A stretch of 64,000 bases of DNA from Sipunculus nudus (Eukaryota > Annelida > Sipuncula > Golfingiida > Sipunculidae): NCBI GenBank assembly GCA_026874595.1, contig CM049319.1, positions 64,596,417 to 64,660,416 of the forward strand, in the 5' to 3' direction. Positions 11,301 to 56,652 of this stretch are shown one piece after another. Position 1 is the stretch's first letter, and each line of letters begins with the position of its first letter. The notes beneath the pieces are model-generated. The model was not told the origin of the DNA and ran no database searches. It worked only from the letters and a program-made list of their open reading frames with translations. Both the position numbers and the translations under genes were made by a program.

Positions 11301-11834
11301 TGTAAGAACAGTTTATTAAGACCACTATACCTTTAATGACATAAAAAAATAAATGTTTTTTTCATAATTACTGATGCTTAAGAATGGTATACAGAAGTGA
11401 TGGAGTCTTTTCTGAAAGGTGGATGAAATTTGAAAAACTAGCTGTGTCGGTACGACACGAATGCCCCCGCCTGGGGCAAATTAGAAACATTTGTTAAATT
11501 TTGTAAAATTTTTTTAAGTTCAGGAGGTGTTGTATGGTCAAAAGTAGGTCAAGAAGGGCAAAATGCAAACTCGATCTGTAACGGGTCATTATCAAGGAAC
11601 ACACCAAAAATCAAGCCAGTATGCAGGCACTGTGAAAAAAAGTCCATACATGTGCATTTTTCATAAAAAATTCTCTTTTATGAAATTTTCTATGTTCAGG
11701 ATCTGTCATATGGTCAAAAATAGGTTAACTGGGATGAAACGCGAACTTGACCTTTAAGTGGTCATTATGCGCCTACAGACCAAACATTGGGCCAGTATCT
11801 GTAAGCATTGTATTGCGAAACTAGAATATTAGCA

Positions 11835-12487
11835 AAAGCTGGTAATCAGTTATAAATTTAAATTGGAGAGGTATGTACCATGTTTTATAACAATCCACCA
11901 AATGCTTCCTGAGAAATATCCCCCTAAGTTTTTTTTCTATACTAAGCTCTGTGACCTTGAAACCACCCATCTTTGAACCTGACCAAGATTTTGTAAATAT
12001 GATGCAAAAGCACTGAAGTAATGAAGTTCTTCAGTTGAATACCTTTGGAGATATCCTGCACAAAGGCCAAAACTGAAAAATCCGATAAAATTTCATTAAA
12101 AAATCAGAAATTGAAGGTGACGCCACCAAAATTGTGCAGAACGTACAGACCATCAGTCCCAATGATCATAGTAAGTTTTGTGAAAATCCACACAATGGTT
12201 CCTGAGATATAAGCTTCTGAGGGTTTTTCTATAATCAGCTCTAAAATGTAGAAAAATGGGTCAAGGTCACCCATCTTCGAACTTGACTGAGATTTTATCG
12301 ATATTTATCTTCACTGATGAAATAAAATTCCAACGGTGAATCCTTTTAGAGATATCCCGCTCACAAGGTAAAAGTTAACAGATGGGGAACAGACAGACAG
12401 ACGGACGGACATCGACAGACAGATGGACGGATAGACGGACAGCTTGTGTGACGACAATAGCCCATCAGCCTATGAGCTGAGGGCTAA
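11835..12487 (+). mobile_element. Family-I fragment inside the class-3 element
   Basis: Two diverged ~300-bp units ('gagaaatatccccctaag...' near 11,905 and 'gagatataagcttctgag...' near 12,208), with the palindrome variant GGTGACGCCACC at 12,116. A gacagacggacggac tract follows. The 3' end is a hairpin with arms TAGCCCATCAGC and GCTGAGGGCTA (one bulge) plus AAAAA near 12,460-12,490. Class-3 sequence resumes immediately after. The 5' terminus was not found. Confidence 0.65.
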
Positions 12488-12489
12488 AA

Positions 12490-13580
12490 ACGGCTGTACA
12501 TGTACATTTGTCATAAAAATAATTTTCATGAAATTTTCTATTTTTAGGAGCCGTAAAACAATCAAAAGTAGGTCAACCGGGACGAAACGCGAACTCGATC
12601 TGTAACTGGTCATTATCTGCATACACACCAAAAATCAGGCCAATATCTGCAAGCATTGTGAAAAAAAGTCCGTACAGGTGTATTTGTCATGAAAATTTCT
12701 ATTTTTCATGAAATTTTCTAAGTTAAGGAGCCATAAAACGGTCAAAAGTAGGTCAACCTGGACGAAACGCAAACTCGATCTGTAACTGGTCATTATCTGC
12801 CCACACACCAAAAATCAGGCCAATATCTGCAGGCATTGCGAAAAAAAGTCTGTACATGTGTATTTGTCATGAAAATTTCTATTTTTCATGAAATTTTCTA
12901 AGTTTAGGAGCCGTAAAACAGTCAAAAGTAGGTCAACCGGGAAGAAAGGCGAACTCGATCTGTAACTGGTCATTATCTGCCCACACACCAAAAATCAGGC
13001 CAATATCTGCAGGCATTGCGAAAAAAAGTCCGTACATGTGTATTTGTCATGAAAATTTCTATTTTTCATGAAATTTTCTAAGTTTAGGAGCCGTAAAACA
13101 GTCAAAGTAGGTCAACCTGGACGAAACGCGAACTCGATCTGTAACTGGTCATTATCTGCCCACACACCAAAAATCAGGCCAATATCTGCAGGCATTGCGA
13201 AAAAAAGTCCGTACATGTGTATTTGTCATGAAAATTTCTATTTTTCATGAAATTTTCTAAGTTAAGGAGCCATAAAACAGTCAAAAGTAGGTCAACCTGG
13301 AAGAAACGCGAACTCGATCTGTAACTGGTCATTATCTGCCAACCCAACAAAAATCAGGCCAATATCTGCAGGCATTGCGAAAAAAAGTCCGTACATGTGT
13401 ATTTGTCATGAAAATTTCTATTTTTCATGAAATTTTCTAAGTTTAGGAGCCGTAAAACAGTCAAAAGTAGGTCAACCGGGACAAAACGGGAACTCGATCT
13501 GTAACTGGTCATTATCTGCCCACACACCAAAAATCAGGCCAATATCTGCAGGCATTGGGAAAAAAAGTCCGTACAACTGT
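12490..13580 (+). repeat. Homogeneous 180-bp tandem array of the class-3 element
   Basis: About six units. Consecutive anchors are spaced 180, 180, 179-180, 180 and 180 bp. Internal units differ by only a few substitutions (e.g. cgtaaaaca/cataaaacg, gggacg/ctggacg), whereas the two upstream units at 11.5-11.8 kb are clearly diverged. Each unit contains inverted 'tttcatgaaa'-like segments and no frame that is open through all units. Confidence 0.85.
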
Positions 13581-13673
13581 TTTATTTCGGAAGGACGGAA
13601 GGACGGAAGGACAGAATGACGGACATGGGTAAAACTATATGCCCCGGCCACTTTGTGGCGGGGGCATAAAAAC

Positions 13674-15371
13674 AAGTGACCCATTGTAAAAGCAAAATTG
13701 CACTGTTAACATATGGACAGAAGATCAGCATTATTATAACCTTAACCCATAACTGTAGTTAGTCAACAGTTAATTGCTAATAAACAAACAGAGCTCAGAA
13801 TACAGAACAAAAAGTTATACATAAAACCATTGTCACAATACTGAAAATACTGAATCCATGAGTAGGCTAAGTAAATGTTTTACTAGGTTCAACTTTACAC
13901 ACAGCTGCAAATAACATACTTGTATGTAAATGTCAGATATGTCAACAAACTTGAACTATAACTGTGTATCATAGCATACTGCTGGATTAATTCAAATGTT
14001 GATCAATGCATGTTCATTCATATTTTATACAGTGTTAAAAATGGGTTCCACAAATATTTATGTGAAAATGATATATGCACATGGCATATAACCTATAAAG
14101 CAGGTGCTCTCTGACTCTCATCACGGTCTGCAGGGACGAAAACTTAATTACAGTGCTTCAATCAACGACTGATTTGTAACCTCCCCATACAAGGAGCTTA
14201 GTAGTGTTTGTGCACAATGCGATATTTTTTTTTAAAATAGAGCTTCATTAATCATTGTTATGAACATCATGATATAAAGTTTTGCAGAACAGTAAGAGTA
14301 TCTTGTTTAGATCCAGACTGCAGCTTACTCCCAATAGGATGTGCTTTTTACATGAGTTGTGTATTTCTATCCATCTTGGCACATGCCACACTGCACAATA
14401 GCCATGAATTTATATGAAGCAACACAGCATTGTGCATTTTGTTTGTATTACAAAGGGATATACACATATTTAAATTAAGTGTCAATGCGTACGTACTGGC
14501 TTATGTACCATAACTGAATCTTTAAGTAATTTAACTCAGATATTTATGATTTAATGGGAAGTTAATTCTGCCTTTGATAAACATTAAGAGCTTATAATTC
14601 AACTTATGTGCAAATGTGGGATGTTAGAAATATCTGATAGCATATTTTAGTCACCCTTGGTGGAGTATGGTGCTTGCTGCGCCTTTATTAAACTGTCCTC
14701 TGACATGTCTTTACCAGCAACATGTCAAGCCCTTGTCCTGTTGTTTGAATTATGTCACACTTCCTGCTGACCAACACAAACTCAAGGCCCAGTAAGCTGT
14801 TCTTGTCTATAAATTTGGTCTAAAATGCCAGGTTATACCCTCACCATACTTTATACCCAGTTAAAATTAAGCCTAGGTCAGCATATTCTCTGGCCAAGGC
14901 TATTTTTTAACACACTGCAATCAGGTAGGAACTAATTTTGTTTTATAAGGAATAATGTTTTCTATTACAAATCACCCAAATAAATTGTATTAAATTTTCA
15001 GCCAGGGTTCTTTGAAAATTAAATGTCACATTCTTAAGTTTTTAATGAATATTGGTCCAATGAAGCGGATAATTGGCCCTAAGCCTCCCAATAAGCTTCA
15101 TACTACTGCATAAACCACCCCTCCCACCCACAGATGATATCAGTCTTTTATATCATGAAATAAAATTTATCTCGGTATATTGTGATATCAAAATATCAGT
15201 TACTGGAGCAGGAACTGCAGTTCTTGTTATCATATCAAGATTGTCAATGCTTTCCACCATGTTTCTGGGACAAACAGAAAATCAGCAAATTGTTGGCAAA
15301 TCCTCCCATGAAAATCCCTGCACCAAATGGAGTTCTGCACCAAAGCCCCTTCCCTCACCCTCAGTCAAAAA

Positions 15372-15383
<12 letters not shown>
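13674..15383. other. Unassigned stretch
   Basis: Starts with a truncated class-1 5' motif ('caagtgaccca', 13,673-13,683). The rest shows no repeat shared within the window, no tRNA-like fold and no convincing exon. The ORF at 15,073-15,375 is short, low in conserved-looking composition and runs into the TA tract. Confidence 0.35.
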
Positions 15384-15402
<19 letters not shown>

Positions 15403-15720
15403 TATTTACTTATTTAAGGGAAGACTTTTGTCCTCATTACCATTAAGGGTAGGGGGCTTTTGTTTGAGGAACTATTTCCCAGGAAAGGCGTTTTTTTTTT
15501 TGGGGGGGGGGGGACTTTAGTCCTCTCCATTAAGGTAGGTGGGCTTTTGACTGGGGGGGGGGGGCTTTTGTCCTGGGGGACTTTTACCAGAGGCTGCTTT
15601 TGTTTTCTTTATCATTAAAGTAGAGGGATTTTTGACTGGGGCCCATGCTTTTGTCCTGGGAGAGTTTTTACCACATGGGCTTTTGTCCAGGGGCAGGGGG
15701 TTACCCATATAACAAGCAAT
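15384..15720. repeat. (TA)n and G-rich degenerate repeat ('ggcttttgtcc')
   Basis: A TA microsatellite (about 15,384-15,406) is followed by at least six imperfect copies of a 'ggg-cttttgtcc-tgggg' motif with runs of up to 12 G (15,420-15,705). The asymmetry, G-rich on the plus strand, suggests either a decayed transposon terminus made of short sub-repeats or a G-quadruplex-forming tract. No coding content. Confidence 0.5.
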
Positions 15721-16733
15721 TTAATATATTAATTGTTTTAATAATATTTTTTTAAGGTTGCACCCCTGGCTAAAACTCAACCCATTTTAATTTAATATCA
15801 GACCTGTACAGTACATATAATTTCAAACATGGTGTAGTGTCTTTCTAATGGTATATGTATTTATGAAATACACATTAATTTTTTTTATAAACAATTTTAA
15901 TATTTTGGAAATGTTTTAAAAAAGTATATTTGATTTTAAGCAACCAATCACAGCAAACCACTTATTAGTTGCCCAATGACAAATTTCATTAAAATATCTC
16001 AAACCATTTTTTTTGTTTTTCCTCTACCATGTTTCTTTCAAAATAATGTTTTAAATTTTGATTTGATAAAAAATTTAAATTTCACTTTTGAACATGAATT
16101 AATCTGGATACCTAAGTTGTTAAACAAGGCCTTTAAACTGAACAATGGACCATAACTAAGGCTATAAGCAGGTAGAAAACAAAACAGAACAAACAACATC
16201 CAAACAACAGCCCACTTTGCACCTTAGATACAGTATAAGAGATAGGGCTGATTTTATCCAGGGTATAAAGTGAACAGGGGTTATTCTGGCCTGCAACACT
16301 GAACTGACCAATGGACACGAAAAGAGCCTGTCTGTACATAATTCATGCCTGGTTAGCTCTCAGTGCCCTCTATTGAAATGTCTGCGACTTGTGTACCTAC
16401 AAACTAGATCTCTTCAGTGTTTATTTACTGGGCCAGACCATTTTGTAACCACAATAGGTGACATATTTATAGCTTAATGTTTTTAAAGACACAGAATTTC
16501 ACACATACCGTGAATATTATTAGTGTACCACAAGACCAGGAACTAATTCAGGTAACATCAAGTGTTCATGTGGAATCATGGCAACACAATGAAACAAGTC
16601 TAGTGTTAAATAAGTCTGAATGTAACATAGCTGTAACCGAGTGCCAGGTCACCAGAATTTTATAGGAGTTTTATAGGAGGAAGGGCTTAAGTTGGTTAGC
16701 ACCAGCCCCCATTACAAGGTTTTAGGCAGATTG

Positions 16734-16734
<1 letters not shown>
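15721..16734. other. Unassigned stretch
   Basis: No repeats shared with the rest of the window and no splice-flanked frame that I trust. The ORF at 16,477-16,665 lacks any recognisable motif. Confidence 0.3.
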
Positions 16735-16769: not shown

Positions 16770-16772
<3 letters not shown>

Positions 16773-20369: not shown

Positions 20370-20424
20370 TATATATATATATATATATATATGGCACAGT
20401 GCTCAATGGTTTACCCAGAGCATA

Positions 20425-27084: not shown

Positions 27085-27936
27085 AACCTGAGTATAAAAA
27101 GAAGATAATATGCAACATACCAATATACTAACATCCGCATAAAGATAGGAACACCTATCTGAAAATAATACTGACACTAAGATGGTAAAATAATTATTTG
27201 TAATGTGTATATATAGGATGTTCCCTGGGTGTATCAAGTGCAGTAATATTTTTAATTTAATGCTGATATGATTTTCTTTACAAATTTAGCTAAGTTTGGT
27301 AGTTGTAATCGATCCTCAGTATTGAACAATAGGTGCATTTTTAAGGTGTTTGGTCTAGTCAGGTAAAACTTTGGTATTAGGCGGGATCTTTCTGTCTTGA
27401 AGGTAGTACATTCAAACAAATAATGAAACTCATCACCGTGGGTATTTAGATTACATAATGTGCATAGACTAGAATGTTTTTTATGTTTAAAAAGACTAAT
27501 ATGAGATGGAAGTTTGTGATTTGCACACCGAAATTTAATCATGGCATTTCTCTCTGAGAGGTTAAGTGTATTTAAATACTTTTCAAAGCCAAAGTCCTGC
27601 TTAATTATCCTATAACTGTGGCACAGTTTGTTTTCTGCCAATTCATTATGCCAATTTTGCTTACAGATATCATTAAGTCTGAGCTCTATGCTCCTTTGTA
27701 ACCATTTCTTGTTAACATCATGACCGGTGTTCCACATGGATGAGTATCCACATCTATTGAGAATACTTTTGATCTTTGATGCCCATACTGGTTTAAATTC
27801 ATTGCTGTCATAGAGTTTTTTCTGAAGACTAAACATGATAAATGACAACTTGTGCTGCTTTCCTTCCAATTAATTTTATCCAATAGTTGATCATTCTTCT
27901 TTCAATAAGATTGTCAATAGGAGTTCTATGTGAAAT
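26904..27936 (-). mobile_element. 5'-truncated LINE (non-LTR retrotransposon)
   Basis: Minus strand: degraded ORF2 3' end (27,252-27,936), about 320 bp of 3' UTR including 'ccgaaaggggtccttctgagttgaataaac', then a (TAAAC)n tail at 26,904-26,930. A tail of short tandem repeats instead of poly(A) is common in some non-LTR clades. The insertion lies in a repeat also present without the LINE at about 35,585-35,600 ('caccactttgtggacac'), giving an empty-site comparison. The 5' end is lost at the junction with the right arm. Confidence 0.75.
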
Positions 27937-29089: not shown

Positions 29090-29934
29090 CAAGGGACCTA
29101 TGGGTCACGACGCTCAGCTGTTATATATGATAAAAAAATATTATTAAGAAATGAGGCACATGCTGGTTTTGTGTGGTAATAAATATAAGCTGTATTATGA
29201 GTTGTTGTTGTTTAACTTGTGTATAATTCTGATAGTACCTTTGGAGACAGGGAAGAGGATTGATTTCATTTATTTTATTAACAAATGAAGTACTACTGTC
29301 ACACAGATTTTGACTTGGCCATATAACTTATAAGCAGAACAAATAATATAAGAGTTTAACTATTTATTTAAAAAATTACAAATATTGTCCCAAATATAAT
29401 TTTTATTAAAAATAATAAGAGAATCATATGATTTTTTAAAATGAAATATAACTGATATGATTATTAAAATAATATTAAAGAATATATTCATGAATGCATT
29501 CATGAATACATTTTGAAAGTATTTGCACGAGTATTCATATACTTTCATTTTTACCTGAATTCCCATTCTTTATGCAAGAAATTTTATAATGGAGTACATA
29601 ATCATATTCGTATTTAAATACAATTACAAAGTACTCGCACCATGTCTGGTATTTATTCAGTTTTCACCAAACAAAGATGTTGAGAATCCAGAATATACAA
29701 AATTCACACATTTAAATAATGATCATAAGTACCTGGTTTTATGGCCTTTATTTATATAACAAGTGACCCATGGGTCATGACGCTCAGCTGACTGGGAAGA
29801 GATTCGCAAAAGGAAATTTTATCATCAGAATGGTAGTATATACCCATTCAACTGAAGCATCAAACAGATTAACCAACAGGCCAAGATTTAGTCTGTATTT
29901 ATATATCTCAAAAATAGAGAAAAATGTGTAAACT

Positions 29935-31112
29935 TTTAAAACTAGAATACGGGTAACCGACAAGTGACTACATGTATCTGCCAAAATCAGATAGTGAGGC
30001 ATGGATTGAGTGGCAAGGGGAAATAGAGTGAGGTATGTTGCATATTAGCATGGATGTCTGCAGCCTAAATGTGTATGTAGGTTGTGCCACCTACCACAAA
30101 TCCAGAAAGCTGTCCAAGTTGTATACACCTGCAAAATTTTAGGCAGAAAAGTCAAACCACTACATGTATATGAGCGATTTTTGCCCATGGCAGACAAACA
30201 GACAAACACTGTGCAAAAATCTTTCCAGGTAACCCCTCCAGTTTTGTGCATGATAAAGACCTATGTGAGATCTAAACACATGCACAATTTTGGCCCAATC
30301 GGTCAAATGGTTCCTGAGATATGAGCTTGGATGTGTCCAGCATTAACTAGAATGTAGGTGGCGCCACCTGTCATAAAATCAAGAAAGCTGTCCACGATGT
30401 ATAAACCTGCAAAATTTTAGGCAGTTATGTCGATCCACTACAGAGAAATGAGTAATTTTAGGCCACGGCAGACTAACAGACAGACGCTGTGCAAACATTG
30501 TTACAGGTGGCGCCACCATTTTTTGTGTATGTTACAGAGCTATCAAAGGGCTACATTTGTATAAATTTTATTTCCTGATCGGTCAAACGGTTCCCGAGAT
30601 ATAAGCTTGGATGTCATCAGTGTGAACGTGAACGTAGGTGGCGCCACCTGTCATAAAATCAAGAAAGCTATCCTGGATGTATACACATGACGAATTTCAG
30701 GTGAATTAGTCAATTCACTGCAGAGATATGAGTGATTTTAACCCAAGGCAGATGAACAGATGGACACTGTGCAAACATGGTTACAGGTGGCGCCACCATT
30801 TTTTGTGTATGTTATAAAGCAATCCAAGGGCTACATTTGTATCAATTTTATTTCCTGATCGGTCAAACGGTTCCCGAGATATGAGGGTTTATGAGTGGAA
30901 ACAGACCCACAAATGGACACTGGATAGAGAGGAAAGGTCAGAGGTCAATGCAAATTGGTTAGGCACCAGTTCACATGTGACCCGATAATAGGTGTAAGTT
31001 TGGGAAAAATCGGTCCATTAGTCTCCGAGGAGCTCTCTGGAAACGAACGCGGCGGCGGCGGAGGAACTCGGTCAAAAACATAGTATCCGCAAAACTTCGT
31101 TTTGGCGGATAC
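29935..31112 (+). mobile_element. Class-2 element (family C) nested in class-1
   Basis: The 5' end is 'actagaatacgggta' and TATCTGCC. The 3' end is a hairpin at 31,083-31,112: arms GTATCCGCAAAAC and GTTTTGGCGGATAC, loop TTC, one bulge, then AAAAA. Perfect GGTGGCGCCACC copies lie at 30,357, 30,506, 30,637 and 30,786, in two alternating contexts ('taggt...tgtcataaaatc' and 'caggt...attttttgtg'). A 'gcggcggcgg' run near 31,050 is local. Non-coding. Confidence 0.8.
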
Positions 31113-33167
31113 AAAAATACAGGTGGCTCCACCAGTCTGCAGAAACTAATAAAAACACTTAATGGTCAATATCCATGCAAAAAATCATGGTGATCTCTGC
31201 ATTAGTTGTTCAGATACTTCAGTTTTTGTATCAAATTGTCCATTATTCTGAGGGATACTTTGGAGTCCTATAGCTTGAAGGATATGGGTAACAGAGACCT
31301 AATTTCAAGTTTCCACAGGCACCTTTCATGGGCCTCCTTGCATGACAAGAATGAAGATTCTAGGTCCAGTTGTTGCGATTTGTACCCTGTTGACAGATAA
31401 CCACATCTTTAAAGGTCTCAAAAAAAAGAAAAAAATTCGTAAAAATTTGAAAAAAAAAATAGAGGTGGCACACCCAGTCTGCAGAAACTGATGAACAGCT
31501 CATGATCAATATGTATGCCGAAAATCATGACCATCAGTGTTGTAGTTATTGAAATACTGCAGTTTTTGTATCAAATTTTCCAATATTCTGGGGGGGGGGG
31601 TATTTTGGACCCATACAACTTAAAGAATATGGGTAACAGAGACCTGATTTCAAGTTTCCATGGAGACTTTACATGGGTCTCCCTGTGTGTCAAGAATGAA
31701 GATTCTTGGTCCAGTTTTTATGATTTGTGCCCTGTTAACAGATGTTCATATCTTTAAAGGTCTCAAAAATACAGAAAAATTTCGTAAAAAAAAACGAACA
31801 AATACAGGTGGTGCCACCAGTCTGCAGAAACTTATGAAACACTCCATGATCAATATCCATGCAAACAATTATGGTTATCTCTGCATTAGTTGTTCAGATA
31901 CTTTAGCTTTTGTATCAAATTTTCCATTATTCTGAGCTGTACTTTGGAGTGCCATAGCTCAAAGGATATGGGTAACAGAGACCAAATTTCAGGTTTCCAT
32001 GGAGACTTATCATGGGTCTCCCTGTGTGTCAAGAACGAAGATTCTAGGTCCAGTCGTTACGATTTGTACCCTGTTGACAGATAACTACATCCTTAAAGGT
32101 CTCAAAAATGGAGAAAACAATTCGTGAACATTGAAAAATACAGGTGGCGCCACCAGTCTGCACAAACTGATGAAACATCTCATGATCAATATGTATGTCG
32201 AAAATCATGACCATCAGTGATGTAGTTAATGAGATATTGAAGTTTTTGTATGAAATTTTTGACTATTCTGGGGGGTAATTTTTGGCCCCATAGCTCGAAG
32301 GATATGGGTAACAGAGACCTAATTTCTGGTTTCCATGGAGACTTTTCATAGGTCTCTCAGTGTGTCGAAAATGAAGATTCTAGGTCCAGTCGTTATGATT
32401 TGTGCCACACTAACAGATGACAGCATCCTCAAAGGTCTCAAAAATAGAGGAAAAAATCGTAAAAAATCAAACAGTACAGGTGGCGCCACCAGTCTGCAGG
32501 AACTGATCGAACATCTCATGATCAATATGTATGCCAAAAATGAAGACCATCAGTGATGTAGTTATTGAGATATTGAAGTTTTTGTATGAAATTTTTTACT
32601 ATTCTGGGGGGTACTTTGGGGCCCCATAGCTCAAAGGATATGGGTAACAGAGACCTAATTTCTGGTTTCCAAGGAGATTTTTCATGGACCTCTCAGTGTG
32701 TCAAGAAATAAGATTCTAAGTCCAGTCTTTATGATTTGTGCCTTGTTAACAGATGTTCACATTTTTAAAGGTCTCAAAAATAGAGAAAAAAATTCGTAAA
32801 AAATCGAAAAATACAGGTGGCGCCACCAGTCTGCAGGAAGTGATGTAACATCTCATGATCAATAGGTATGCCAAAAATCATGACCATCAGTCAAGTAGTT
32901 AATGAGATATTGAAGTTTTTGTATGAAATTTTTGACTTTTCTGGGGGGTACTTTGGGGCCACATAGCTCGAAGGATATGAGTAACAGAGACCTAATTTCT
33001 GGTTTCCAAGGAGATTTTTTATGGACCTCTCAGAATCCCAAGTTACAAGGTTCTAGGTCCAGCGGTTACGATTTGTGCCTGGTTAACGGACGGACAGACG
33101 GACAGACGGACGACGGACAAAGAGTGATCGCTATAGCTCAGATGACTTTCAGTCAGCTGAGCTAAAA
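31113..33167 (+). repeat. Second family-B tandem array, six units
   Basis: Anchors at 31,122, 31,464, 31,807, 32,143, 32,479 and 32,816 (the last three perfect GGTGGCGCCACC), spaced 336-343 bp. It ends in a gacggacagacgg tract (33,087-33,118) and the class-1 hairpin. Unit order and variants parallel the 1.2-4.9 kb array, so both descend from a common multi-unit element. Confidence 0.85.
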
Positions 33168-39229: not shown

Positions 39230-40611
39230 ACTCCTCCGTAACCACTGGGCGGAATTTTACGAAACCCGGGATTATGTTCGGGTCACATGTGAACTGCTGC
39301 GCCCCGATTTTGTTTTGACCTCTGACCTTTCCTCTGCGCTCTGTGTCCATTTGTGCGTCTGTTTCCACACATAAACCCACATATCTCGGGAACCGTTTGA
39401 CCGATCAGGAAAATTTTTTTGCACAAATGTAGCCCTCGGAGAGCTTTATAACATACACAAAAAATTGTGGCGCCATCTGCAACCATGTTTGCACAGTGTC
39501 CATCTGTTCGTCTGCCTTGGGTTAAAATCACTAATATCTCTGCAGTGACTTGACTAATTCACCTGAAATTTGGCATGCGTATACATCCTGGATAGCTTTT
39601 CTGATTTTGTGACAGATGGCGCCACCTACATTCACGTTTACGCTGCAGACATCCAAGCTCATATCTCGGGAACCGTTTGACCGATCAGGAAAATTTTTTT
39701 GCACAAATGTAGCCCTTGGAGAGCTTTATAACATACACAAAAAATGGTGGCGCCACCTGCAACCATGTTTGCACAGTGTCCATCTGTTTGTCTGCCTTGG
39801 GTTAAAATCACTCATATCTCTGCAGTGACTTGACTAATTCACCTGAAATTTGGCATGCGTATACATCCTGGATAGCTTTTCTGATTTTGTGACAGGTGGC
39901 GCCACCTACATTCACGTTTACGCTGCAGACATCCAAGCTCATATCTCGGGAACCGTTTGACCGATTGGGCCAAAATTTTGCATGTGTATAGATCTCACAT
40001 AGCTCTTTATCTTCGCAAAACTGGTGGCGCCACCTGCAGCCATTTTTGCACAGCTCCTGTCTGTTTGTCTGCCATGGGATATAATCACTCATATCTCGGC
40101 AGTGGTTTGACATATCTGGCTAAAATTTTGCAGGTTTATACATCCCCGACAGCTCTCTTGATTTTATGACAGGTGGCGCCACCTGCATTCTAGTTTATGC
40201 AGCAGACATCCAAGCTCATATCTTGGGAACCGTTTGACTGATTGGGCCAAAGTTTTGCATGTGTATAGTTCTCACATAGCTCTTTATCATACGCAAAACT
40301 GGTGCCGTCACCTGCAACCATTTTTGCTCAGCGTCCATCTGATTGTCTGCCACTGGCTAAAATCACTCATATACATGTAGTGGTTTGACTTATCTGCCTT
40401 AAATTTTGCATATGTATACAACTTGGACGGCTTTCTGGATTTTGTGGTAGGGGGGGGCAACCTTCATACACAATTTGGCTGCAGACAACCATGCTAATAT
40501 GCAACACTTCACTCTATTTCCCCTTGCCACTTAATCCATGCCTCACTTCACCCGTTCCACTCTGATTTAGGCGGATACACGTAGTCGCTTGTCGACTACC
40601 CGTATTCTAGT
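39230..40611 (-). mobile_element. Class-2 element (family C), minus strand
   Basis: The minus-strand 5' end at 40,611: ACTAGAATACGGG, then a hairpin (GTAGTCG, loop ACAA, GCGACTAC; 40,581-40,599) and GTATCCGCC. Perfect GGTGGCGCCACC copies at 39,746, 39,895, 40,023 and 40,172 (spacing 149, 128, 149). The 3' terminus near 39,235 is decayed ('gggcggaattttacg' on the plus strand). Two ~280-bp units at 39,360-39,900 are almost identical. Confidence 0.8.
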
Positions 40612-45246: not shown

Positions 45247-45820
45247 CAAGTGATCCGTGGGTCATGATGCTCAGCTGACTGACATGTTGATAATTTGTTC
45301 TTGCACAGACAACTTATAAAGATAGGTGGCATCATTGTTGATGTTTATTAGCTTAAGTTCATCAAGACCCATAAGCACAACAAATTTGATGACAATCCAA
45401 CCAGCCTTTCATGAGGAATCTGGCAATTTGTGTGTATTTTGCATTATTTCTGGGGTGCTCAAACATACCCCAAAACTCTGAGAATATAGGTTAACTGTGA
45501 CCCAATTTCAGGTTTCTGGGGAGAACATTTTAGGAACTCTCAGGATGTCAAGTTAGAAGATTCTTGGCCCCATGGTTATGATTTGTGCGCTACTTTGGTA
45601 AAAAATTTTTAATTATTCTGAGGGGTGCTTATAAGCCCCATAGCTCAGAAAATATGGGTAACAGAGACCTTAATTTATGTATCCAAGGAGATTTTTATAG
45701 ATCTCCCTGGATGTCAAGTTTGAAGATTCTAGGACCAATGGTTACAATATGAGCCCTGTTAAGGGACGACCGCATCTTTTAAGGTCTCAAAATAGAGAAA
45801 AAAAAATCGTAAAAAATCAA
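45247..45820 (+). mobile_element. Class-1 element 5' part with diverged family-B units
   Basis: The 5' end 'caagtgatccgtgggtca' and GCTCAGCTGACT (45,269-45,280) is followed by two strongly diverged B units ('gggtaacagagacc', 'ggtctcaaaatagag'). It is interrupted at 'aaaaaatcaa', where a class-4 element begins. Confidence 0.7.
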
Positions 45821-47435
45821 ACAAGGCCTACAGGCCTAATGCGAACCTGTGCATATGGATATACACCAGGTATAACGCTTCAATGCTGAACCACTACTTT
45901 TCATATATGAACAATGCTAGTACTAAACATTTTGAACAAGAAACAATACACAAACATCACTGCTGAAATCCTGGCATGGGTGCACACAACACTAAAAAGA
46001 TTGTAGCTGGCACCACCAGTCTTGTATACAACGAAGCTATCAGAGACATAGACATATGCCCAATTTCAGACTGATATATCAAACCCCTCCTGAGAAAAAC
46101 GCAGGGACACACACTGTGCAAAAGTCATTGTAGGTGGCGACACCTGTCTTGTGAGCGAGAAAGCCATCAAAGACACATAGACAGGTCAAAATATTAGGCC
46201 AATACATCAAAATATTAGGCCAATACATCAAACTTACCTTGAGTCTGATGCATGGGGCTGAACAGGCTTAGGTGAGAAAGGCTGTTGCCCCGAGTGAACT
46301 GTGACAAATTGCTTGCTCAGGCTACTCCACTGAGTGAATTCATGACCTGCACCTGGCTAGACTGGGTGAACTTTTGACCTGTACCTGGCTGCACTGAGTG
46401 AACTCTTGACCTGTTGCATAATCTGACACAGTTGGCAGTCTGCCAAAGCTATAAATAGAATGCAGCTACTGCACTGAGTAAACTCCTGACCATACCTGGC
46501 TGCACTGAGTGAACTCTTGACCTGTTGCCTAATCTGATACAGTTGGCAGTCTGCCAAAGCTATAAATAGATCCAGACTGACCTCTAGCCTGTTGCCAAAT
46601 CTGAAATAGTAGCCACACCATTGCATAAACTCATGCAGGGGCCCTGCCTTGAGGGGCTTGACACCAATGAAGTGATCACATGGTGCCCATGAGGTGTTCA
46701 CATGTCACCCATGAGGTGATCACATGCCTTGTGCTTGGCTGCACTGAATGAACTCTTGACCTATATCTGGCTGCACTGAATGAACTCTTGATCTGTTGCC
46801 AAATCTGAAAGAGTTGGCAGTTTCTCAACCTATTTAAAGATACGGATTCAATCTTGGACTGTTGGTATATCTGTTAACACATACTGAAAGACTTTGGCTA
46901 AAATTTTTTTATTATTCATATACATAAACTTTTTATCAAAATATCTAGAATAATAAAAGATGACCAATGACCCCCGTACAAAAAAAGATTAATGCCGGTG
47001 GCGCCACCAATACCTGAATTTTATAAATGACTCAAGTGACCAACACTGGCAAAAAATTTGATGATGATAGCTCCGGCCGTTTCTGAGACTGTCATTTTAA
47101 TATGCTTTTTTGGACAGATGACTATGTTCAACTTCCTGTAACTCAGCCAAAATTCACCAAACATGAAACATTGGAACAAAATTGAGGGAGATGGTATAAA
47201 AGATAATTTCTGTGAAATATTGAACAATTTGGCTTGAGTGTTTCGGAGGAGAAGGTTTTAAAGTTTTTTTCAGCTTTTTCTCTATAAAATTTAAGAAAAT
47301 GCAGAGCTTTTGAGATGGCTAATTTTTTGCATTAAATTTCATTAGCTTGCTCCAATCATTTTCAAAATAATATAGGTTATCGTACAGAAGACAAACGCCG
47401 CCACACCATGGCATTAGCTCACAGGTTCCCTAAAA
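45821..47435 (+). mobile_element. Class-4 element copy 3, both ends present
   Basis: The 5' end has 'acaaggcctacaggcct' and GCGAACCTGTG (45,841-45,851). The 3' end has 'ccacaccatggcattagct' and CACAGGTTCCC (47,420-47,430, one mismatch to the inverse), then TAAAAA. The interior has E-type repeats with 'tataaatag' at 46,449 and 46,560, a GGTGGCGACACC variant at 46,133, and an H module with a perfect GGTGGCGCCACC at 46,997. Non-coding. Confidence 0.8.
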
Positions 47436-48700
47436 ATTATTACAGATGCAAATTGAATGCAAAATTGTAATACAGATACATCTCACTGATGGCAAAATCT
47501 TGAATTAATTTGACTATGGATACCAATTATTTATAATCCATGTACAGCCGTCTTTATATACCCAAAGACAGCTGTATACCTGTGATTGTAAACATTGCCT
47601 GGCATGAGGAATATCTAAAAATCATAAATCTACATTTTTTAAAAGCTTTTAAAAAACATTCTTTTCAATATTAACCATAGATAACCTGAAATCTAAATGT
47701 CTGGAGGCATGATGTAATAAATGCTGATAAACTGGTGCCAGTCTAGATGTATCTGCTTCACACAGCTAACATATATGGTAAAATGACTCAATTCAATCTT
47801 TATAATTCAGCCAAAATTAATTCTTTGGAACCATAAAAGACAATTATTATAAGAATTTTTCAGGGGATTATTCTTGTAAAATATTAAACAAATTGGCCTC
47901 AGTAGTGTCAGTCAAAAAAAATTTTTACAGGTTTATAACTCAAATGGGAAAATACAGCAAAATGGCTAAGTTAAGCTTCCCATACCTCAGCCAAAAATCA
48001 CTGAACCAAAACCATTTTAACAAACTTGAATTATCCACATCTAAGGATAATTAATGTGTGAGATTTAAGAATTTGGCCCAGTGGTTTTTGAGGAGAAGAT
48101 TTTTGTAGCCACTTAGCTAACATGGGCTGTTATGGCATATGACTACATTCAGCTTCCCATAACTCAGCAAAAAGTCACTGAACTGAGACCATTTGAACAA
48201 ACTTGAATTATCAACATCTATGGATAATTAATGTGTGAGATTTAAGAATTTGGCCCAGTGGTTTTTGAGAAGAAGATTTTTGTAGCCACTTAGCTAAAAT
48301 GGACTGTTATGGCATATGACTAAATTCAGCTTCCCATAACTTACCCAAAAGTCACTGAACTTAGACCATTTGAACAAATTTCAGAAAGCACTACCCTAGG
48401 ATCATTTCTGTGCGATATTAAACTATTTGGCCATATGGTTTCAGAGAAGAAGTTTTTAGTAGCCGTCAGTATGATACAGGCACTGATGACCCCCGTACAA
48501 AAAAGGTCAATGCAGGTGGCGCCACCAATACCTCAATTTCAGATATGTCTCATGTGAACAACATTGGCTTAAAATTTGGTGATGATAGCTCCAGCCGTTT
48601 CTGAGATTGTAATTTTAGTATGCTTTTATGGACAGATGACTAAGTTCAACTTCCTGTAATTCAGCCAAAAATCACCGAACTTAAACCATTCGAACAAACT
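47436..48700 (+). mobile_element. Further class-4 sequence: three ~180-bp units and a second H module
   Basis: 47,690-47,990 matches 7850-8150. Three units anchored on 'agcttcccata(a/c)ctcag' follow at about 47,971, 48,150 and 48,329, then an H module with a perfect GGTGGCGCCACC at 48,515. It is cut at about 48,700 by class-1 sequence. Confidence 0.65.
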
Positions 48701-50456
48701 TGAGTGTTTTTTGGAATATGTGACATTCTATCCATCGATACAAGATTCTTATATCATCAGTAACTGCAAGTTAATTTCCTGTTATTACAAACTAGCAAAT
48801 TCCTTTTCTATTTTACTTTAATTTGTTATTAAAAACCATTAAAAAATTATTAATTTATTGTTTATTGTTATGTTGTTGGTTAAAACTACTAGATGAGTTG
48901 GGTTGGACACCTGGATCAACTGTGGCTGGCCATAAGCTGCCTGGCTGCCCCAGTGGATGCCTCGCCTCAAGCATGCATAATTTGCTGAAAGTTCAACAAG
49001 GTCAACATACAGGTGACTCAAGAGGGGCTGGAGAGAGCCAAGGTCTGACATGGTCTCATAAAAACATGAATAAAAGCTACAATTTTTGGCTAATTTCTTT
49101 CAGCTTTCTAAACTAAAAAGCTGAAATCCTTATGTGTGCATGATATGAAAATTATATCAACAGTGCTCACAGGAAACAAACGTGCCATGGTCAAATTTGG
49201 GCAAAATTTAAGGTACTAATTTTTTATTTATACTAATAACTTATAAAATTTGAAAAATTCAGAACAAATTTTGGGTATTCAATTGAATCTTGATTAAATA
49301 ATGTTACATCCCTGACAAAAAATCTCTAGCTTCAGCAATCCCCTTGTTAAGGGAGTAAATATATTTCTTGATCTTTTACAAAGTGCATTATGTTTGGGCC
49401 CATAACTTAAAACAATTATGCAATACTGACATCATTTCTGGCATGTGCATAGAGAATGTATAGAAAAATATTTATATTATATATGATTAACGTCAGATCA
49501 GTGGTTTTGATATTAGACAGTCTTGAAGTGTAACAATGGGTTTTTAATGGAAAAATGAACTTTTTCTTAAATATCTCAAAGGTTTTAAGTCCTAGTGACC
49601 AAATTCTAGGCATGGTAGGGGATTTTGGAGACATCTAATTGTTTTCCAAATTTTAGGAACTGAGAGCTGAAGCTGGGGAGCTTAGCTCTTGCAAACTGCA
49701 TAACACTAGCTTGATGTAAACGATATGTTACATGGTGCTTGAAAACTTGTATAAAATCTACAGTTTTAAATCAACTGGTTTCAATTTTTGGTGTAAACAG
49801 ACAAAATGCTAACAAAAACATGCTGTGAAAATTAAATCCACAGTCCTTACAGGAAAAAAAACGTGCCATGGTTAAAGTTGGGCAACATTTAAGGTACCAT
49901 TTTTTTATTTTTGTTATTATTTTAAAAAATGTAAAAGATTTGGATCTAATTTTGGGTATATTATTTAATTTTGATTAATTAAAGTTATATTACTGGAAAA
50001 AAAGTCCATAGCTTTAACATGTTTTGTGTTAAGTGATCAAATATCTTTCCTGATTTTTTACAAAATGCATTATGTTTTGGCCCATAACTTTTTTTAAATT
50101 ATATAATACAGACATAATTTCTGGCATGTACATAAGAACTATATAGAGGAATATTTATGGTAAATATGAGGAAAAACAGATGAGTGGTTTTGATATTAGA
50201 CAGTCATGAAGTGTGAAAAAAGGTTTTTAATAAAAAATTGAGGTTTTTCCTTAATTTCTCAAAGGAATGAAGTCGCAAAGACCCAGTTTTTGGCTTGGTA
50301 GGAGATCTTGGGGACATCTAACATTATGCAGAATTTTGGATTCCTAGGTCTTACGGTTTCAAAATGTGCCACATCTACAGACGGACGGACGGACGGACGG
50401 ATGGGCAGACGGACGGACGACGGACGATGGACCACGACTATAGCTCAGATGACTTA
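48701..50456 (+). mobile_element. Class-1 element: AT body, A' and A modules, truncated hairpin
   Basis: The body 48,705-49,180 matches 5945-6400, and A' and A match 1-1233. An ACGG tract (50,382-50,425) is followed by only the left arm of the 3' hairpin ('tagctcagatgactt'); the right arm is missing and family B starts directly. Confidence 0.75.
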
Positions 50457-51735: not shown

Positions 51736-51739
51736 TATA

Positions 51740-52570
51740 CTCAAATATAGGGTCTGCATCTGACCCTGGTAAAACTAAATACTTTACCCAAACCCAGTGG
51801 GTAAAACCAGGATTTAAAGTATTTTACCCAAGCTGGTTCCCATGTTTATTTGCTTTTATCAAGCAAAACCAAAGATTTGTTTATTTCTGATCAGTCAGCA
51901 GAAGTTATACCCACATTTTGTGAATATTGGTAGTAAGCCAAGTGGCTCTGACCTCATAACCCTGTCTAGAACTAAGTAAAAGAAGCCATTTACAACTGAT
52001 ACTTTAATTCATGTTTGGCTGTGCTGAGCAAATCTCTCCAATTAACCAAAAAATAGGGGTAACGCACAGCAATCCTAGATACTACGGCTGAAATGGGTAC
52101 AAAATTTTGGACTCGAGTACCCGACAGGCATTACCCGAATCGGACTCGAGTACTTGTTACCATAGCAATGCTGTAAAGATAAAACAGACATTTCTTTACG
52201 GAGGCAAAATATGCATAAATTTGACTTTGTGACAGCTTAACTTTATCCCAGTGAAGGAATAGATATATATGTCATTACAAGACCTCTGTTAATTTGACTA
52301 GCATATGTTTAGGGCCCTATGCCAGGCTACGATAATGAATTAATAGGCCTACAGCCTGCCCGTAAATTTGCAGTAATATTCAGATATGCATGTACATACA
52401 CAAGAACTCGAGACCAAATTTTGGACTCGAGTACTCGGTTAGTATTACCGGGACTCGAGTACTCCTTTCAGCCCTACTAGATACTGGGTATTACCTATTT
52501 TACCCATGCAACCCAGGTTTCACCTTGATAAACCCATGTTTTACCTGGTGCTGGGTAAAACCAGTGAACT
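51740..52570. mobile_element. Palindromic element, 'gggtaaaacc' type, copy 1
   Basis: The ends are rich in 'gggtaaaacc' and its inverse ('cccagtgggtaaaaccagg' left, 'acctggtgctgggtaaaaccag' right). The central part ('ttatcaagca', 'aaaagaagccatttac') is collinear with 60,707-61,130. Interrupted at 52,083 by a hAT MITE. Non-coding. Confidence 0.65.
52083..52476. mobile_element. hAT-type MITE with perfect 8-bp target duplication
   Basis: 394 bp. Ends TACGGCTGAAA and TTTCAGCCCTA (inverse at 10 of 11 positions), with repeated 'actcgagtac' inside both ends. Flanked by CTAGATAC at 52,075-52,082 and 52,477-52,484, an exact 8-bp duplication as expected for hAT transposition. The surrounding 'gggtaaaacc' element continues across it. 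No ORF. Confidence 0.9.
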
Positions 52571-53220
52571 CATCTCAAATAGTAAATAACAGCCATCACA
52601 GCCTGAATTCAGTACTAAAAGACAGAGCAAAACAATTCACACAATCCAATATCTTCAGTTAAACCTAGCTGTCTGCCATCAGCTAAACATCTCCCCTCTC
52701 TGCTGTCACTTCAGGTCACCCCTACATCCAAAACCCTAACCTTTCAACAATGGAACTGGAACTGTATATACAGTGCTTGCAGGGATTTAATTTTGCAATA
52801 TTCACAAATGGGAATTAAATCATCAATATGAAACCCTAGGGAATAAGATGCCCCATAAACTAAGATGACCTCCGAAAACAACCTCATCAGCAACCCAATT
52901 TTTACCTGGTTTTGTAACTGGCCCATGCATTAGCAGAACACACAGACTGTGATACATATCGACTGTGATACAAGTCCTAATTTAATGACTGAACCAGAAA
53001 TTAGTTAGGTATTTGGGATTTGTTCGAAACTTTAAATGAATACAGATCCTGCTGTGCTTAAATTTTACAGGTTCTGATGCAATTGCGAAAAAGAAATCTT
53101 TTGGAAACATTCAAAATGCAGAAATCACATAATTTCAGCCTCGCAAACATAAAACCAACCACAGTATCCCCACACATGTATCATACGGAGTGCCATTGTA
53201 CATGAGTGAGAGACCAACTA
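52571..53220. other. Unassigned stretch
   Basis: No repeat or exon recognised. Confidence 0.3.
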
Positions 53221-53437
53221 ACAAGGGACCCATGGGTCACGGCGCTCAGCTGTTATATATGATAAACAAGGCCTACAGCCCTAATGCTAACCTGTGCTAA
53301 GTTTGAGAGTATGAATGGAGGTTTATTTTTAAAATTGAATATTGATCCTCCTAAGTCCTGCATATCTACCTTAGTCATTATGATATCAGCAAATTGGACA
53401 TTTCGGACCTGCAAGTTTCAGACTAGGACATTTTAAA

Positions 53438-54857
53438 ACTAGAGTATGGGTAGTCGACAAGCGACTATGTGTATCCGCAGAAATCAGAGTGGGACGGGTG
53501 AAGTGAGGGATGGATTAAGTGGCAAGGGGAATAGAGTGAGGTGTGTTGCATATTAGCATGGATGTCTGCAGCGTAAACGTGAATGTAGGTGGGGCCACCT
53601 GTCATAAATCGAGAAAGCTGTCCAGGATGTATAAACCTGCAAAATTTCAGGTGGATAAGTCAAAACACTGCTGAGATATGAGTGATATTATCCAAAGGCA
53701 GATGAACAGATGGATGCTGTGCATTAGAGGTTGCAGGTGGCGCCACCAGTTTTGCCTATGATGAAGAGCTATGTGAGATCTTTACACATGCAAAATTTTG
53801 GCCCAATCGGTCAAACAGTTCCCGAGATACGAGCTTGGATGTCTGCAGAGTAAACATGAATGTAGGTGGCGCCACCTGTCATAAAATCGAGAAAGCTGTC
53901 AAGGATGTAAAATACCTGCAAAATTTCAAGTGGAAAAGTCAAACCACTGCTGAGATATGAGTGATTTTAACCTAAGGCAGATGAACAGATGGACGCTGTG
54001 CATAAATGGTTGCAGGTGGCACCACCAGTTTTGCCTATGATGAAGAGCTATGTGAGATCTATACACAGGCAAAATTTTGGCCTAATCGGTCAAACGGTTC
54101 CCAAGATATGAGCTTGGATGTCTGCAGAGTAAATGTGAATGTAGGTGGCGACACCGGCATAAAATCGAGAAACCTGTCCAGGATGTATAAAACTGCAAAA
54201 TTTCAGGGGGAAAAGTCAAACCACTGCTGAGATATGAGTGATTTTATCCAAAGGCAGATGAACAGATGGACGCTGTGCATAAGTGGTTGCAGGTGGCACC
54301 ACCAGTTTTGCCTATGATAAAGAGCTATGTAAGATCTATACACATGCAAAATTTTGGCCCAATCGGTCAAACGGTTCCTGAGATATGAGCTTGGATGTCT
54401 ACAGAGTAAATGTGAATGTAGGTGGCGCCACCTGTCATCAAATCAAGAAAACTGTCCAGGATGTATAAACCTGCAAAATTTCAGGTGGATAAGTCAAACC
54501 ACTGCTGAGATATGAGAAATATCATCCCAAGGCAGATGAACAGATGGACGCTGTGCAAAATTGGTTGAAGGTGGTGCCACCATTTTTAGTGTATGTTATA
54601 AAGCTATCAAAGGGCTACATTTGTGCAAATTTTTTAGCCTGATTGGTCAAACAGTTCCGGAGATATGTGGGTTTATGTGTGGAAACAGAAGCACAAATGG
54701 ACACTGGGCAGCAAGGAAAGGTAAGAGGTCAACCAAAAATGAAGGCGCAGCAATTCACATGTGACCTGATGATAAACCTGATTCGCTTAAAATGCAAACC
54801 AAGTTTTTTCAAACAGTTGAAAGATATAGTTCCAATAATCTGGGAATTCTGCATCTA
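53438..54857 (+). mobile_element. Class-2 element (family C), innermost layer
   Basis: The 5' end is 'actagagtatgggtagtcg' with the hairpin arms GTAGTCG and GCGACTA and 'gtatccgc'. Perfect palindromes at 53,736, 53,865 and 54,421, with variants between, in ~280-bp units. The end ('gggaattctgcatct') matches 4879-5281 rather than the hairpin-type 3' end of 31,112. Confidence 0.7.
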
Positions 54858-54884
54858 AACATTGTGTCCAGACGTCTATACACT

Positions 54885-54945
54885 GTGTCTAGACGTCTAG
54901 ACACATTGTCTAGACACCCCCCCCCCCCCCCCCCCCCCCCCCCCC
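54885..54945. repeat. 20-bp perfect palindrome followed by C29
   Basis: GTGTCTAGACGTCTAGACAC at 54,885-54,904 is its own reverse complement. It is the middle of three imperfect copies (from 54,863; partial copy to 54,916). A run of 29 C follows (54,917-54,945). Confidence 0.9.
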
Positions 54946-56652
54946 GAGCCAGGTCAGTTGCCATGGTGATGTCTGGACCCCACCTGTTTGTACTGAGTGA
55001 CCTCTTGACTTGGCTGCATGAAGTCAAATCTGTACTCAAATACAGAAAGCCTTTTTTAATTGGCTACAATGCTTTTTTAAAACTGTATTTACCCAATCTA
55101 TTCTTATAAAACTGGGAGAACCTACCATAGAATAATTCTTGTAAAGTTTAAACCAATCAGCTGAAAAGTTTCATAATAAATCAGTGTATAAGCTAGAAGA
55201 GTTTAAAATTACATTTTTGCCTGTAAAAAACACATCAATGTAGGTGGCGCCACCAATACCTCAAAATCAGATATGACATATGTGACAAACATTGGTATAA
55301 AATTTGGTCATAATATCTCTAGCCGTTTCTGAGATTTTAATTTTAGTGTGCTTTTTTGGACAGATGAATAAGTTCAACCTCCTGTAACTCGGCCAAAAAT
55401 CTCAGAACTGGAACCATTCAAACAAATTTGAGAGAGATTGTTCCAGGGATCATTTCTGTGAAATACTGGACAATTTGGCTGGATAGTTTCAGAGAAGAAG
55501 ATTTTTAAAGGTTTTTAAGCTTTTTCCCTATAAAATCTAAGAAAATGCAGTTAGCCAAAAAATAAGCAAAATCTGATGGAGTTTTTAGATGACTAATTTT
55601 TTGTATAAAATTTGGTGATGCTTAAACTCTTGTTGTTTTCAAGATAGTACAGACGCAGGACGCCGGACGGACACCAGAAGCCGGACGACGCCACACCATG
55701 GCATAAGCTCACAGGTTCGCTAAAAATGAAGTTTTTCATTAATATCTCGAAGGTATTAAGTCCTAGTGACCAAATTCTTGGCATGGTAGGGGATTTTGGA
55801 GACATCTAATTTTATGCCAAATTTAAGGAACTGAGAGCTGAAGCTGGGGAGCTGAGCTCTTGCAAACTGCATAACACCAGCTTGATGTAAACAATATGTT
55901 ACATGGTGTTTGAAAACTCGAATAAAATCTACAGTTTTTGATCAACTGGTTTCAAATTTTAGGTGTTAACAGACAAAGTGCTACCAAAAACATGCTGTGA
56001 AAATTAAATCCACAGTACTTACAGGAAAAAAATGTGCCATGGTAAAAGTTGGGCTAAATTTAAGGTACCAATTTTTTATTTATGTTAATATTTTTAAAAA
56101 TTTAAAAGATTTTGATCTAATTTTGGGTATACAATTTAATTATGATTAATTAAAGTAATATTACTGGAAAAAAAGTCCATAGCTTTAACATGTTTTGTGT
56201 TAAGTGATCAAATATCTTTCCTGATTTTTTTACAAAGTCCATTATGTTTGGGCCCATAACTTTTTTTTTAATTAAATAATACTGACTTAATTTCTGGCAT
56301 GTACATAGGAACTATATAGAGGAATATTTATGGTAAGTATGAAGAAAACCAGATGAGTGGTTTTGATATTAGGCAGTCCTGAAGTGTGAAAATAGATTTC
56401 TAATAAAAAATTGAGGTTTTTCCTTAATATCTCGAAGGAACGAAGTCCTATTGACCCAATTTTCGGAATGGTAGGAGATCTTGGGGACATCTAACTGTAT
56501 GGCGAATTTCAGATTTGTAGGTCCAATGGTGTCGAAATGTGCCAGTCTTACGGACAGACATCCAGACGGATGGACGGACAGACAGACGGACGGACGACGG
56601 ACAATGGACCACGACTATAGCTCAGATGACTTATAGTTAGCTGAGCCAAAAA

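What the first reader, a model, noticed from the sequence alone, without database searches (positions are those of the whole stretch)
11437..55725. Four element classes with unrelated bodies share one end architecture
Seen: class 1 (29,760-33,167) has palindrome TGACCCATGGGTCA then GCTCAGCTGACT at the 5' end, and AGTCAGCTGAGC in a hairpin plus TAAAAA at the 3' end. Class 2 (e.g. 40,611 minus, 31,112) has ACTAG, a GTAGTCG/CGACTAC hairpin, then GTATCCGCC; 3' GGCGGATAC in a hairpin plus AAAAA. Class 3 (11,437-13,673) has ACTAG, a GTGTCG/CGACAC hairpin, then ATGCCCCCGCC; 3' GGCGGGGGCAT in a hairpin plus AAAAA. Class 4 (45,821-47,435; 53,266-55,725) has an AGGCCT palindrome then GCGAACCTGTG; 3' CACAGGTTCGC plus TAAAAA. 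Known: bivalve pearl elements and Helentron-associated elements combine subterminal inverted repeats, central tandem repeats, ACGG microsatellites and a 3' hairpin. Inference: one trans-acting machinery may recognise structure (hairpin plus paired subterminal repeat) while the sequence drifts as a lock-and-key pair within each class.
Basis: partly seen in the sequence, partly recalled or inferred. Interest (0 to 1): 0.78.

Follow-up and report, generated by a model that had tools for sequence, protein, structure and literature searches.

The report
Four Helentron-type hitchhiker DNA families
The shared end pattern is the known signature of Helentron rolling-circle jumping genes, and for one of the four families a protein-coding parent was found in the same animal genome, so the elements are mostly ordinary although the parent is worth having.

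Summary
Reverse-complemented, each starts after a T-run with a subterminal repeat and ends with the repeat's complement, a palindrome, and CTTG or CTAG before TT; in classes 1-3 the first repeat sits in a hairpin. That is the published architecture of Helitron2/Helentron elements and their non-autonomous HINEs.

Class 3 boundaries held at both ends in 18 of 20 copies. Class 2 has a natural empty site at TT without target duplication. Class 4's CTTG end was confirmed, but 47,435 is internal in 29 of 39 other scored copies, and class 4 lacks the 5' hairpin.

New: the class 1 end closes an autonomous Helentron family (98-99% alike) with Rep, PIF1 helicase and a weak endonuclease match. Its 5' side runs into the class 1 tandem array; its exact 5' terminus is seen in one copy only. 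The window holds an endonuclease relic beside a class 1 end.

No partner was found for classes 2-4, so a common machinery is untested. In classes 1-3 the 5' hairpin shares one shape with one unpaired cytosine.

The parts
11437..13667 (-). Class 3 HINE, complete: head ATGCCCCCGCC with hairpin at the 13,667 side, central 180-bp repeats, tail GGCGGGGGCAT + GTGTCG/CGACAC hairpin + CTAG at 11,437
   Evidence: both ends kept in 18 of 20 genome copies fetched
29760..33163 (-). Class 1 HINE: head hairpin at 33,132-33,163, GACGGACA-type microsatellite, 336-bp array, tail AGTCAGCTGAGC + TGACCCATGGGTCA + CTTG at 29,760; carries a nested class 2
29942..31112 (-). Class 2 HINE (1,171 bp) nested in the class 1 array at a T-run
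   Evidence: the left flank is the class 1 monomer up to the insertion point, and the joined flanks align to one H65 monomer
40571..40611 (+). Class 2 tail (3' end) following a 280-bp array; no matching head found in the window
45821..45851 (-). Class 4 tail: CACAGGTTCGC + AGGCCT palindrome + CTTG; boundary confirmed in other copies
47400..47436 (-). Class 4 head-like end; internal in 29 of 39 other scored copies, no 5' hairpin
53266..55726 (-). Second class 4 copy, mosaic: contains a class 2 tail (53,438-53,479) and a 277-bp array
   Evidence: boundaries not tested genome-wide
58131..60003 (-). Class 1b deletion derivative: head at 60,003, ACGG microsatellite 59,918-59,958, endonuclease relic, tail ending at 58,131
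   Evidence: head-tail pairing inferred from order
58287..58442 (-). Helentron endonuclease relic beside the class 1 tail
   Evidence: tblastn to the H66 ORF, 36.5% over 52 aa, E 1.6e-5, the only match of nine Helentron frames in the window; overlapping DNA 58,251-58,415 is 78% identical to the 3' part of H67

Best explanation
The four classes are non-autonomous Helentron (Helitron2) elements, HINEs. In the correct orientation an element is inserted after a run of T on one strand and reads: 5' subterminal repeat (in classes 1-3 folded with a near-complement copy into a hairpin), often a GTCC-type microsatellite, central tandem repeats, the complementary 3' repeat, a palindrome, then CTTG or CTAG followed by host TT. 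Class 1 is derived from an autonomous Helentron family in the same genome (at least about 14 kb; Rep with HUH and two-tyrosine motifs, PIF1 helicase, endonuclease-type C-terminus) that has the class 1 array in its 5' part and the class 1 3' end. Inferred mechanism: RepHel nicks at the T-run beside the 5' hairpin, peels off and replicates one strand, and terminates where the 3' repeat, able to pair with the 5' repeat, and the 3' palindrome signal the end; insertion at TT gives no target duplication. Each class keeps its two repeats complementary, so sequence differs between classes while architecture stays. Shown: ends, boundaries, one empty site, the class 1 parent. Inferred: nicking, pairing, termination, and the partners of classes 2-4.
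For: Grammar found without class knowledge for classes 1 and 3, 0 in 10 shuffles. Class 3 bounded at both ends in 18 of 20 copies, A-rich as read (T-rich) next to the head in all 18. Class 2 empty site: H65 carries an 857-bp class 2 element as TT|element|TT where H66 is uninterrupted, no target duplication. Class 1 3' end: for a query from RepHel locus H65 (CTTG ends at query base 1001) 23 of 39 other scored places end at 999-1007 and one at 1022; five of them are 98-99% identical, and four of these five lie downstream of other RepHel matches on the same strand (C5:42.91, C9:52.35, C10:71.60, C1:71.80 Mb). For a query from H67 (CTTG ends at 894) 28 of 39 other scored places end at 895-898 and one at 902; one of the 28 lies downstream of the RepHel match at C3:10.58 Mb. 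Eight of these ends, read out, have unrelated flanks: seven read CTTG then TT, one CTAGTGTT. 5' side: the class 1 array end continues into the Helentron body at 97% in copies on C1, C5, C8 and C10 and, in two pieces, at 98% on C9, on the strand of their tails; array-to-tail spans 13.7-14.5 kb. H65 has a class 1 head 14.9 kb before its tail. Domains and motifs; RGSPHxH has the Helentron-diagnostic S (PMC4067079 section 7). Window endonuclease relic beside a class 1 tail.
Against: The head-plus-array query from H65 did not list the sister copies among the 40 scored of 12,214 candidates, so the exact 5' terminus of the autonomous family is seen only in H65; the head there could belong to an upstream HINE joined to the array (3 other places do start at query 233-239, the head). 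H67 showed no class 1 head in 7.6 kb upstream, and H66, 93% like H65 in coding DNA, no class 1 tail in 2.6 kb. H65's endonuclease match is below Pfam's cut-off, and the WSDH motif was found only in H66. A large OTU-type Helentron (16 kb read) has none of the four ends. Class 4 lacks the 5' hairpin. No partner for classes 2-4.
Confidence: 0.9

Rival explanations
1. One Helentron machinery, reading hairpin shape rather than sequence, moves all four classes.
For: Classes 1-3 share the 5' hairpin shape: about 8 bp, one unpaired C, about 5 bp, 3-nt loop, with unrelated sequence. In Helraiser, a canonical Helitron, exchanging the 3' hairpin stem while keeping the loop left about 90% activity (PMC4778049 section 8).
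Against: Loops differ between classes, and changing the loop did cost activity in Helraiser; class 4 lacks the hairpin; several Helentron lineages exist in the genome, so one partner per class is possible.
Confidence: 0.2
2. Each class is served by its own Helentron lineage that carries exactly its ends.
For: Class 1 ends were found on RepHel loci; Thomas et al. 2014 describe HINEs as deletion derivatives of Helentrons with the same end structures (PMC4067079 section 7).
Against: No RepHel locus with class 2, 3 or 4 ends as its own boundary was found in the pieces read; only 5 loci were read beyond about 1.5 kb of the Rep domain, out of 143 matches. Two lineages, 68% alike in DNA (H65, H67), share the class 1 end.
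Confidence: 0.65
3. Ordinary DDE-type MITEs with inverted repeats.
For: Short, without long open frames, high copy, with inverted repeats.
Against: Repeats are subterminal and asymmetric; no target duplication at the class 2 empty site; RepHel carriers for class 1.
Confidence: 0.02
4. The class 1 tails lie beside RepHel genes by chance, because class 1 elements are dense.
For: At least six class 1 tails with the CAGCTGAGC repeat occur in this 64-kb window.
Against: Nearly the same distance, the same strand and the same end in H65 and four more RepHel loci, and in two H67-type loci, with 97-99% similarity up to the end and loss of similarity there.
Confidence: 0.02

Closest known systems
HINEs / DINE-1 (Thomas et al. 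2014, PMC4067079; passages and sections 6 and 7 read)
   Same: Subterminal inverted repeats, palindrome at the 3' end, microsatellite and central repeats, TT target, no target duplication, deletion derivatives of Helentrons
   Different: Different species and sequences; here classes 1-3 share a 5' hairpin shape with one unpaired C
Helitron2 (Bao and Jurka 2013, PMC3627910; passages read)
   Same: Asymmetric terminal repeats of 8-15 bp, hairpins at both ends, T-run target; pairing model already proposed
   Different: Class 4 lacks the 5' hairpin
Cg_HINE elements of Pacific oyster (PMC7492417; passages and sections 7 and 9 read)
   Same: subTIR, complementary IR, GTCY microsatellite, satellite-like arrays, 3' palindrome, T-rich target
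   Different: There no autonomous Helentron could be related to the HINEs; here one was, for class 1
Helraiser (PMC4778049; passages and section 8 read)
   Same: CTAG-3' end, CTTG-3' end in some truncated derivatives, hairpin as terminator
   Different: Canonical Helitron with 5' TC and a single hairpin near the 3' end

Membership tests
Helentron/HINE (Helitron2) | Short inverted repeats, 5' copy near the terminus, 3' copy upstream of a palindrome | tested here: met
   all four classes; the class 4 pairs and the nested class 2 pair have one mismatch
Helentron/HINE (Helitron2) | 5' hairpin including the 5' repeat (classes 1-3) | tested here: met
Helentron/HINE (Helitron2) | 5' hairpin including the 5' repeat (class 4) | tested here: not met
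   Both window copies; class 4 is therefore HINE-like by its other features, not a full member by this test
Helentron/HINE (Helitron2) | Insertion at TT or a T-run without target duplication | tested here: met
   Class 2 empty site. T-rich flanks in class 3 and class 1, without empty sites. Class 4: flanks only
Helentron/HINE (Helitron2) | Autonomous partner with Rep, helicase and endonuclease and the same ends (class 1) | tested here: met
   3' end. 5' side. Exact 5' terminus only in H65, not confirmed. Endonuclease match sub-threshold in H65, above threshold in H66
Helentron/HINE (Helitron2) | Autonomous partner with the same ends (classes 2, 3, 4) | tested here: inconclusive
   None found in the loci read
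Helentron versus Helitron1 | RGSPHxH with S (Helentron) rather than L (Helitron) | tested here: met
   H65, H66, H67 and the OTU-type element; criterion
pearl elements of bivalves | Sequence similarity to described pearl elements | not testable with these tools
   No pearl sequence held; host identity as a bivalve is inferred, not shown
DDE MITE | Terminal inverted repeats with target duplication | tested here: not met
   for class 2; not tested for the others

The most novel reading that the evidence does not exclude
Helentron 5' ends carry a sequence-independent recognition structure, a hairpin of about 8 bp, one unpaired cytosine, about 5 bp and a 3-nt loop, that lets one RepHel accept families whose repeats share no sequence, while the 5'/3' repeat pair of each family serves as its private endpoint key. 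Support: three unrelated classes with this shape, and 15 class 1 heads with the mispair kept (14 C-T, 1 C-A, none C-G; one search lists 16, one being the same hairpin read backwards; the list is not exhaustive and the copies are related by descent).
Probability: 0.15. Interest if true: 0.7.

Novelty: new member of a known kind. Interest (0 to 1): 0.4.

Why it matters
HINEs and their arrays are high-copy in this genome (1,890 to 16,329 first-look candidates per query). In oyster no autonomous partner could be matched to such elements (PMC7492417, passages). A young family with long open RepHel frames gives a concrete parent for class 1 and makes the pairing model testable. The shared hairpin shape is a cheap, specific hypothesis about what RepHel sees.

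Tried and rejected
Class 1 5'-hairpin pattern in viral contigs: 0 matches. The OTU-type Helentron on C7/C11 as partner: no class 1-4 end in 16 kb, and both copies are alike over nearly all that was read, so no boundary shows. H66 tail: satellite-like repeats, no clear end. Head of H67: not found in 7.6 kb upstream. An RPA-like stretch upstream of H67 was not confirmed; the one Pfam query for it was partly mistyped. Class 3 head in L056: a HINE inserted in a Helentron, pointing away from the Rep. One grammar hit in the OTU-type element looks like chance. Genome-wide covariation of the two repeats within a class: not done, for lack of letters. After I took the H65 head for a stray HINE; one search then showed that sister copies share the array end, so both results are reported. 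Fuzzy-pattern scripts returned best matches only and are not exhaustive; one search shows further heads.
Full report
Setting. The window lies at C14:64,596,417-64,660,416 of a 1.43-Gb, 153-contig assembly without a name. I take it for a bivalve from the repeat types; that is inference.

The observation. The quoted motifs are there. Read in the other direction they give a familiar order: T-run; subterminal repeat, in classes 1-3 folding with a near copy of its complement; often a (CCGT)n-type microsatellite; body with tandem repeats; complement of the repeat; palindrome; CTTG or CTAG; host TT. DNA folding gives the class 1 head as 8 bp, C-T mispair, 5 bp, 3-nt loop; class 3 as 8 bp, C-C mispair, 5 bp, 3-nt loop; class 2 the same shape with a bulged C; class 4 nothing comparable. 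For the class 1 tail the palindrome is not the minimum-energy fold. A scan that knows only this order found in the window the class 1 element 29,764-33,162 and the class 3 element 11,444-13,667, and nothing in 10 Markov shuffles. A looser scan over 318 kb (window plus fetched loci) found copies of these two classes, the Helentron H65 and one likely chance hit, paired some class 1 heads with a distant class 1 tail, and missed classes 2 and 4.

Boundaries. Class 3: 20 genome copies were fetched; all 20 keep the CTAG end (ACTAG as read) and 18 also the head within 4.3 kb, lengths 1,525-2,253 bp, T-rich next to the head in all 18. Class 2: Helentron H65 (C17) carries an 857-bp class 2 element where its relative H66 (C13, 93% in coding DNA) is uninterrupted: TTCTTATT|element|TTATAGG against TTCTTCTTTTTAGG, so insertion between Ts and no target duplication. 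The window's own class 2 copy (29,942-31,112) sits in the class 1 array; its left flank is that array's monomer up to the insertion point, and its two flanks joined align to one H65 monomer. Class 4: of 39 other copies scored, 20 start at query 220-222 and one at 219 (window 45,818-45,821), and 10 more at 204-217, slightly further out; one starts at 229 and 7 inside, of which 5 have a second piece starting at 211-224. 29 run on through 47,435 to 47,644-47,650 and one to 47,541; 2 stop at 47,437-47,438. The ranking favours long matches, so this shows that a longer family exists and that the window copy belongs to it; it does not show that the short unit never moves.

The parent of class 1. PF14214 (Helitron_like_N) has 143 matches in the genome, seven in open frames above 2,200 aa. 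Besides an OTU-type pair on C7 and C11, the 3' side of three such loci was read. Two, H65 (C17:35.63 Mb, 2,342-aa frame) and H67 (C7:71.19 Mb), have a class 1 tail about 1 kb past the coding region; the third, H66, has none in the 2.6 kb read. Between H65 and H67, 68% alike in coding DNA, the last 35 bp are the only similar stretch after the coding region. As a test, the 3' kilobase of each was searched in the genome. For H65 the tail ends at query base 1001: 23 of 39 other scored places end at 999-1007 and one at 1022; the five best (98-99%) are on C5, C9, C10, C1 and C8, and four of these lie downstream of another RepHel match on the same strand; the C8 copy has no PF14214 row. For H67 the tail ends at 894: 28 of 39 other scored places end at 895-898, one at 902; one of the 28 belongs to the RepHel locus on C3 (97%); the C7:70.98 Mb copy matches on into the flank and is a duplication. 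Eight of these ends were read out: unrelated flanks, seven reading CTTG then TT and one CTAGTGTT.

The 5' side. Upstream of H65 lie the class 1 tandem array and, 14.9 kb before the tail, a class 1 head with T-run, hairpin and microsatellite; a second head lies 0.7 kb further in. A query of head plus array did not list the sister copies among the 40 scored of 12,214 candidates, which speaks against the head; three other places start at query 233-239, the head. A query starting in the last array monomer and running to the class 2 insertion did list them: copies on C1, C5, C8 and C10 match from base 1 or 2 at 97%, C9 in two pieces at 98%, all on the strand of their tails; spans from array to tail are 14.1 (C1), 14.3 (C5), 13.7 (C8), 14.5 (C9) and 13.9 kb (C10). 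A further 24 places match only from base 1 to 116-869 at 90-99%; those that pass the array end, at about base 127, are what deletion derivatives would look like. So the array belongs to the Helentron family; the exact 5' terminus is seen in one copy.

Proteins. H65: Herpes_teg_N, DUF6570, Helitron_like_N, PIF1 and a sub-threshold Exo_endo_phos match; H66 has the same order with Exo_endo_phos_2 above its cut-off; the main frame of H67 shows no endonuclease match. Motifs RGSPHIH, YIVSYVSK, a Walker A motif and GDFN are present in H65; WSDH was found in H66 only. The S before PH marks Helentrons (PMC4067079, section 7). A distinct OTU-type Helentron with OTU, Rep, PIF1 and Exo_endo_phos also occurs, in the C7 copy split over three frames. 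In the window, 58,287-58,442 is an endonuclease relic next to the class 1 tail at 58,131-58,163.

Mechanism. Shown: ends, boundaries, one empty site, one parent family. Inferred from Helitron2 and Helraiser work: nick at the T-run beside the 5' hairpin, strand transfer with replication, termination at 3' repeat plus palindrome. Bao and Jurka (PMC3627910, passages) already propose that the two repeats pair to end the cycle. Helraiser tolerates a new 3' stem but not a new loop (PMC4778049 section 8).

Novelty. Architecture and mechanism are known; the classes are new members of a known kind. A HINE-parent match was reported as missing in oyster (PMC7492417, passages); the paper searches (listings only) showed me no later molluscan match.

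Noticed in passing
window, heads listed: The 12 canonical 5' ends found by that script (four classes) are all on the minus strand, although the 40 class 3 places listed genome-wide are 24 plus and 16 minus as read. The list is not exhaustive and nested arrays make the events partly dependent; a regional strand preference would be worth testing.
   Followed up: partly
window 48704-50300: A very high-copy repeat (13,025 first-look candidates) starts sharply at about 48,704: 38 of 39 other scored copies start at query 1404-1407, one at 1423. Its left end is not one of the four end types; class unknown.
   Followed up: partly
window 1226, 1606, 2124; H65L 1040 and 1764: Several class 1 heads follow each other within one array, as if heads had entered T-runs of the monomers or been amplified by rolling-circle read-through.
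   Followed up: no
window 61421-61465: A TGACCCATGGGTCA + CTTG end without the class 1 repeat: the bases before the palindrome read GGTCAGGTTAGTGTAA. Possibly a further family.
   Followed up: no
window arrays 31113-33087, 30042-30882, 39380-40500, 53550-54587: Monomers of different length (about 336 and 280 bp) in class 1 and class 2 elements share the palindrome GGTGGCGCCACC.
   Followed up: no
window 27252-27869, minus: Open frame of 205 aa that looks like the end of a non-LTR reverse transcriptase (impression from memory, not searched).
   Followed up: no
G000:C7:48525832, 48556035, 48587672: Three near-identical RepHel loci about 30 kb apart, probably a segmental duplication array.
   Followed up: no
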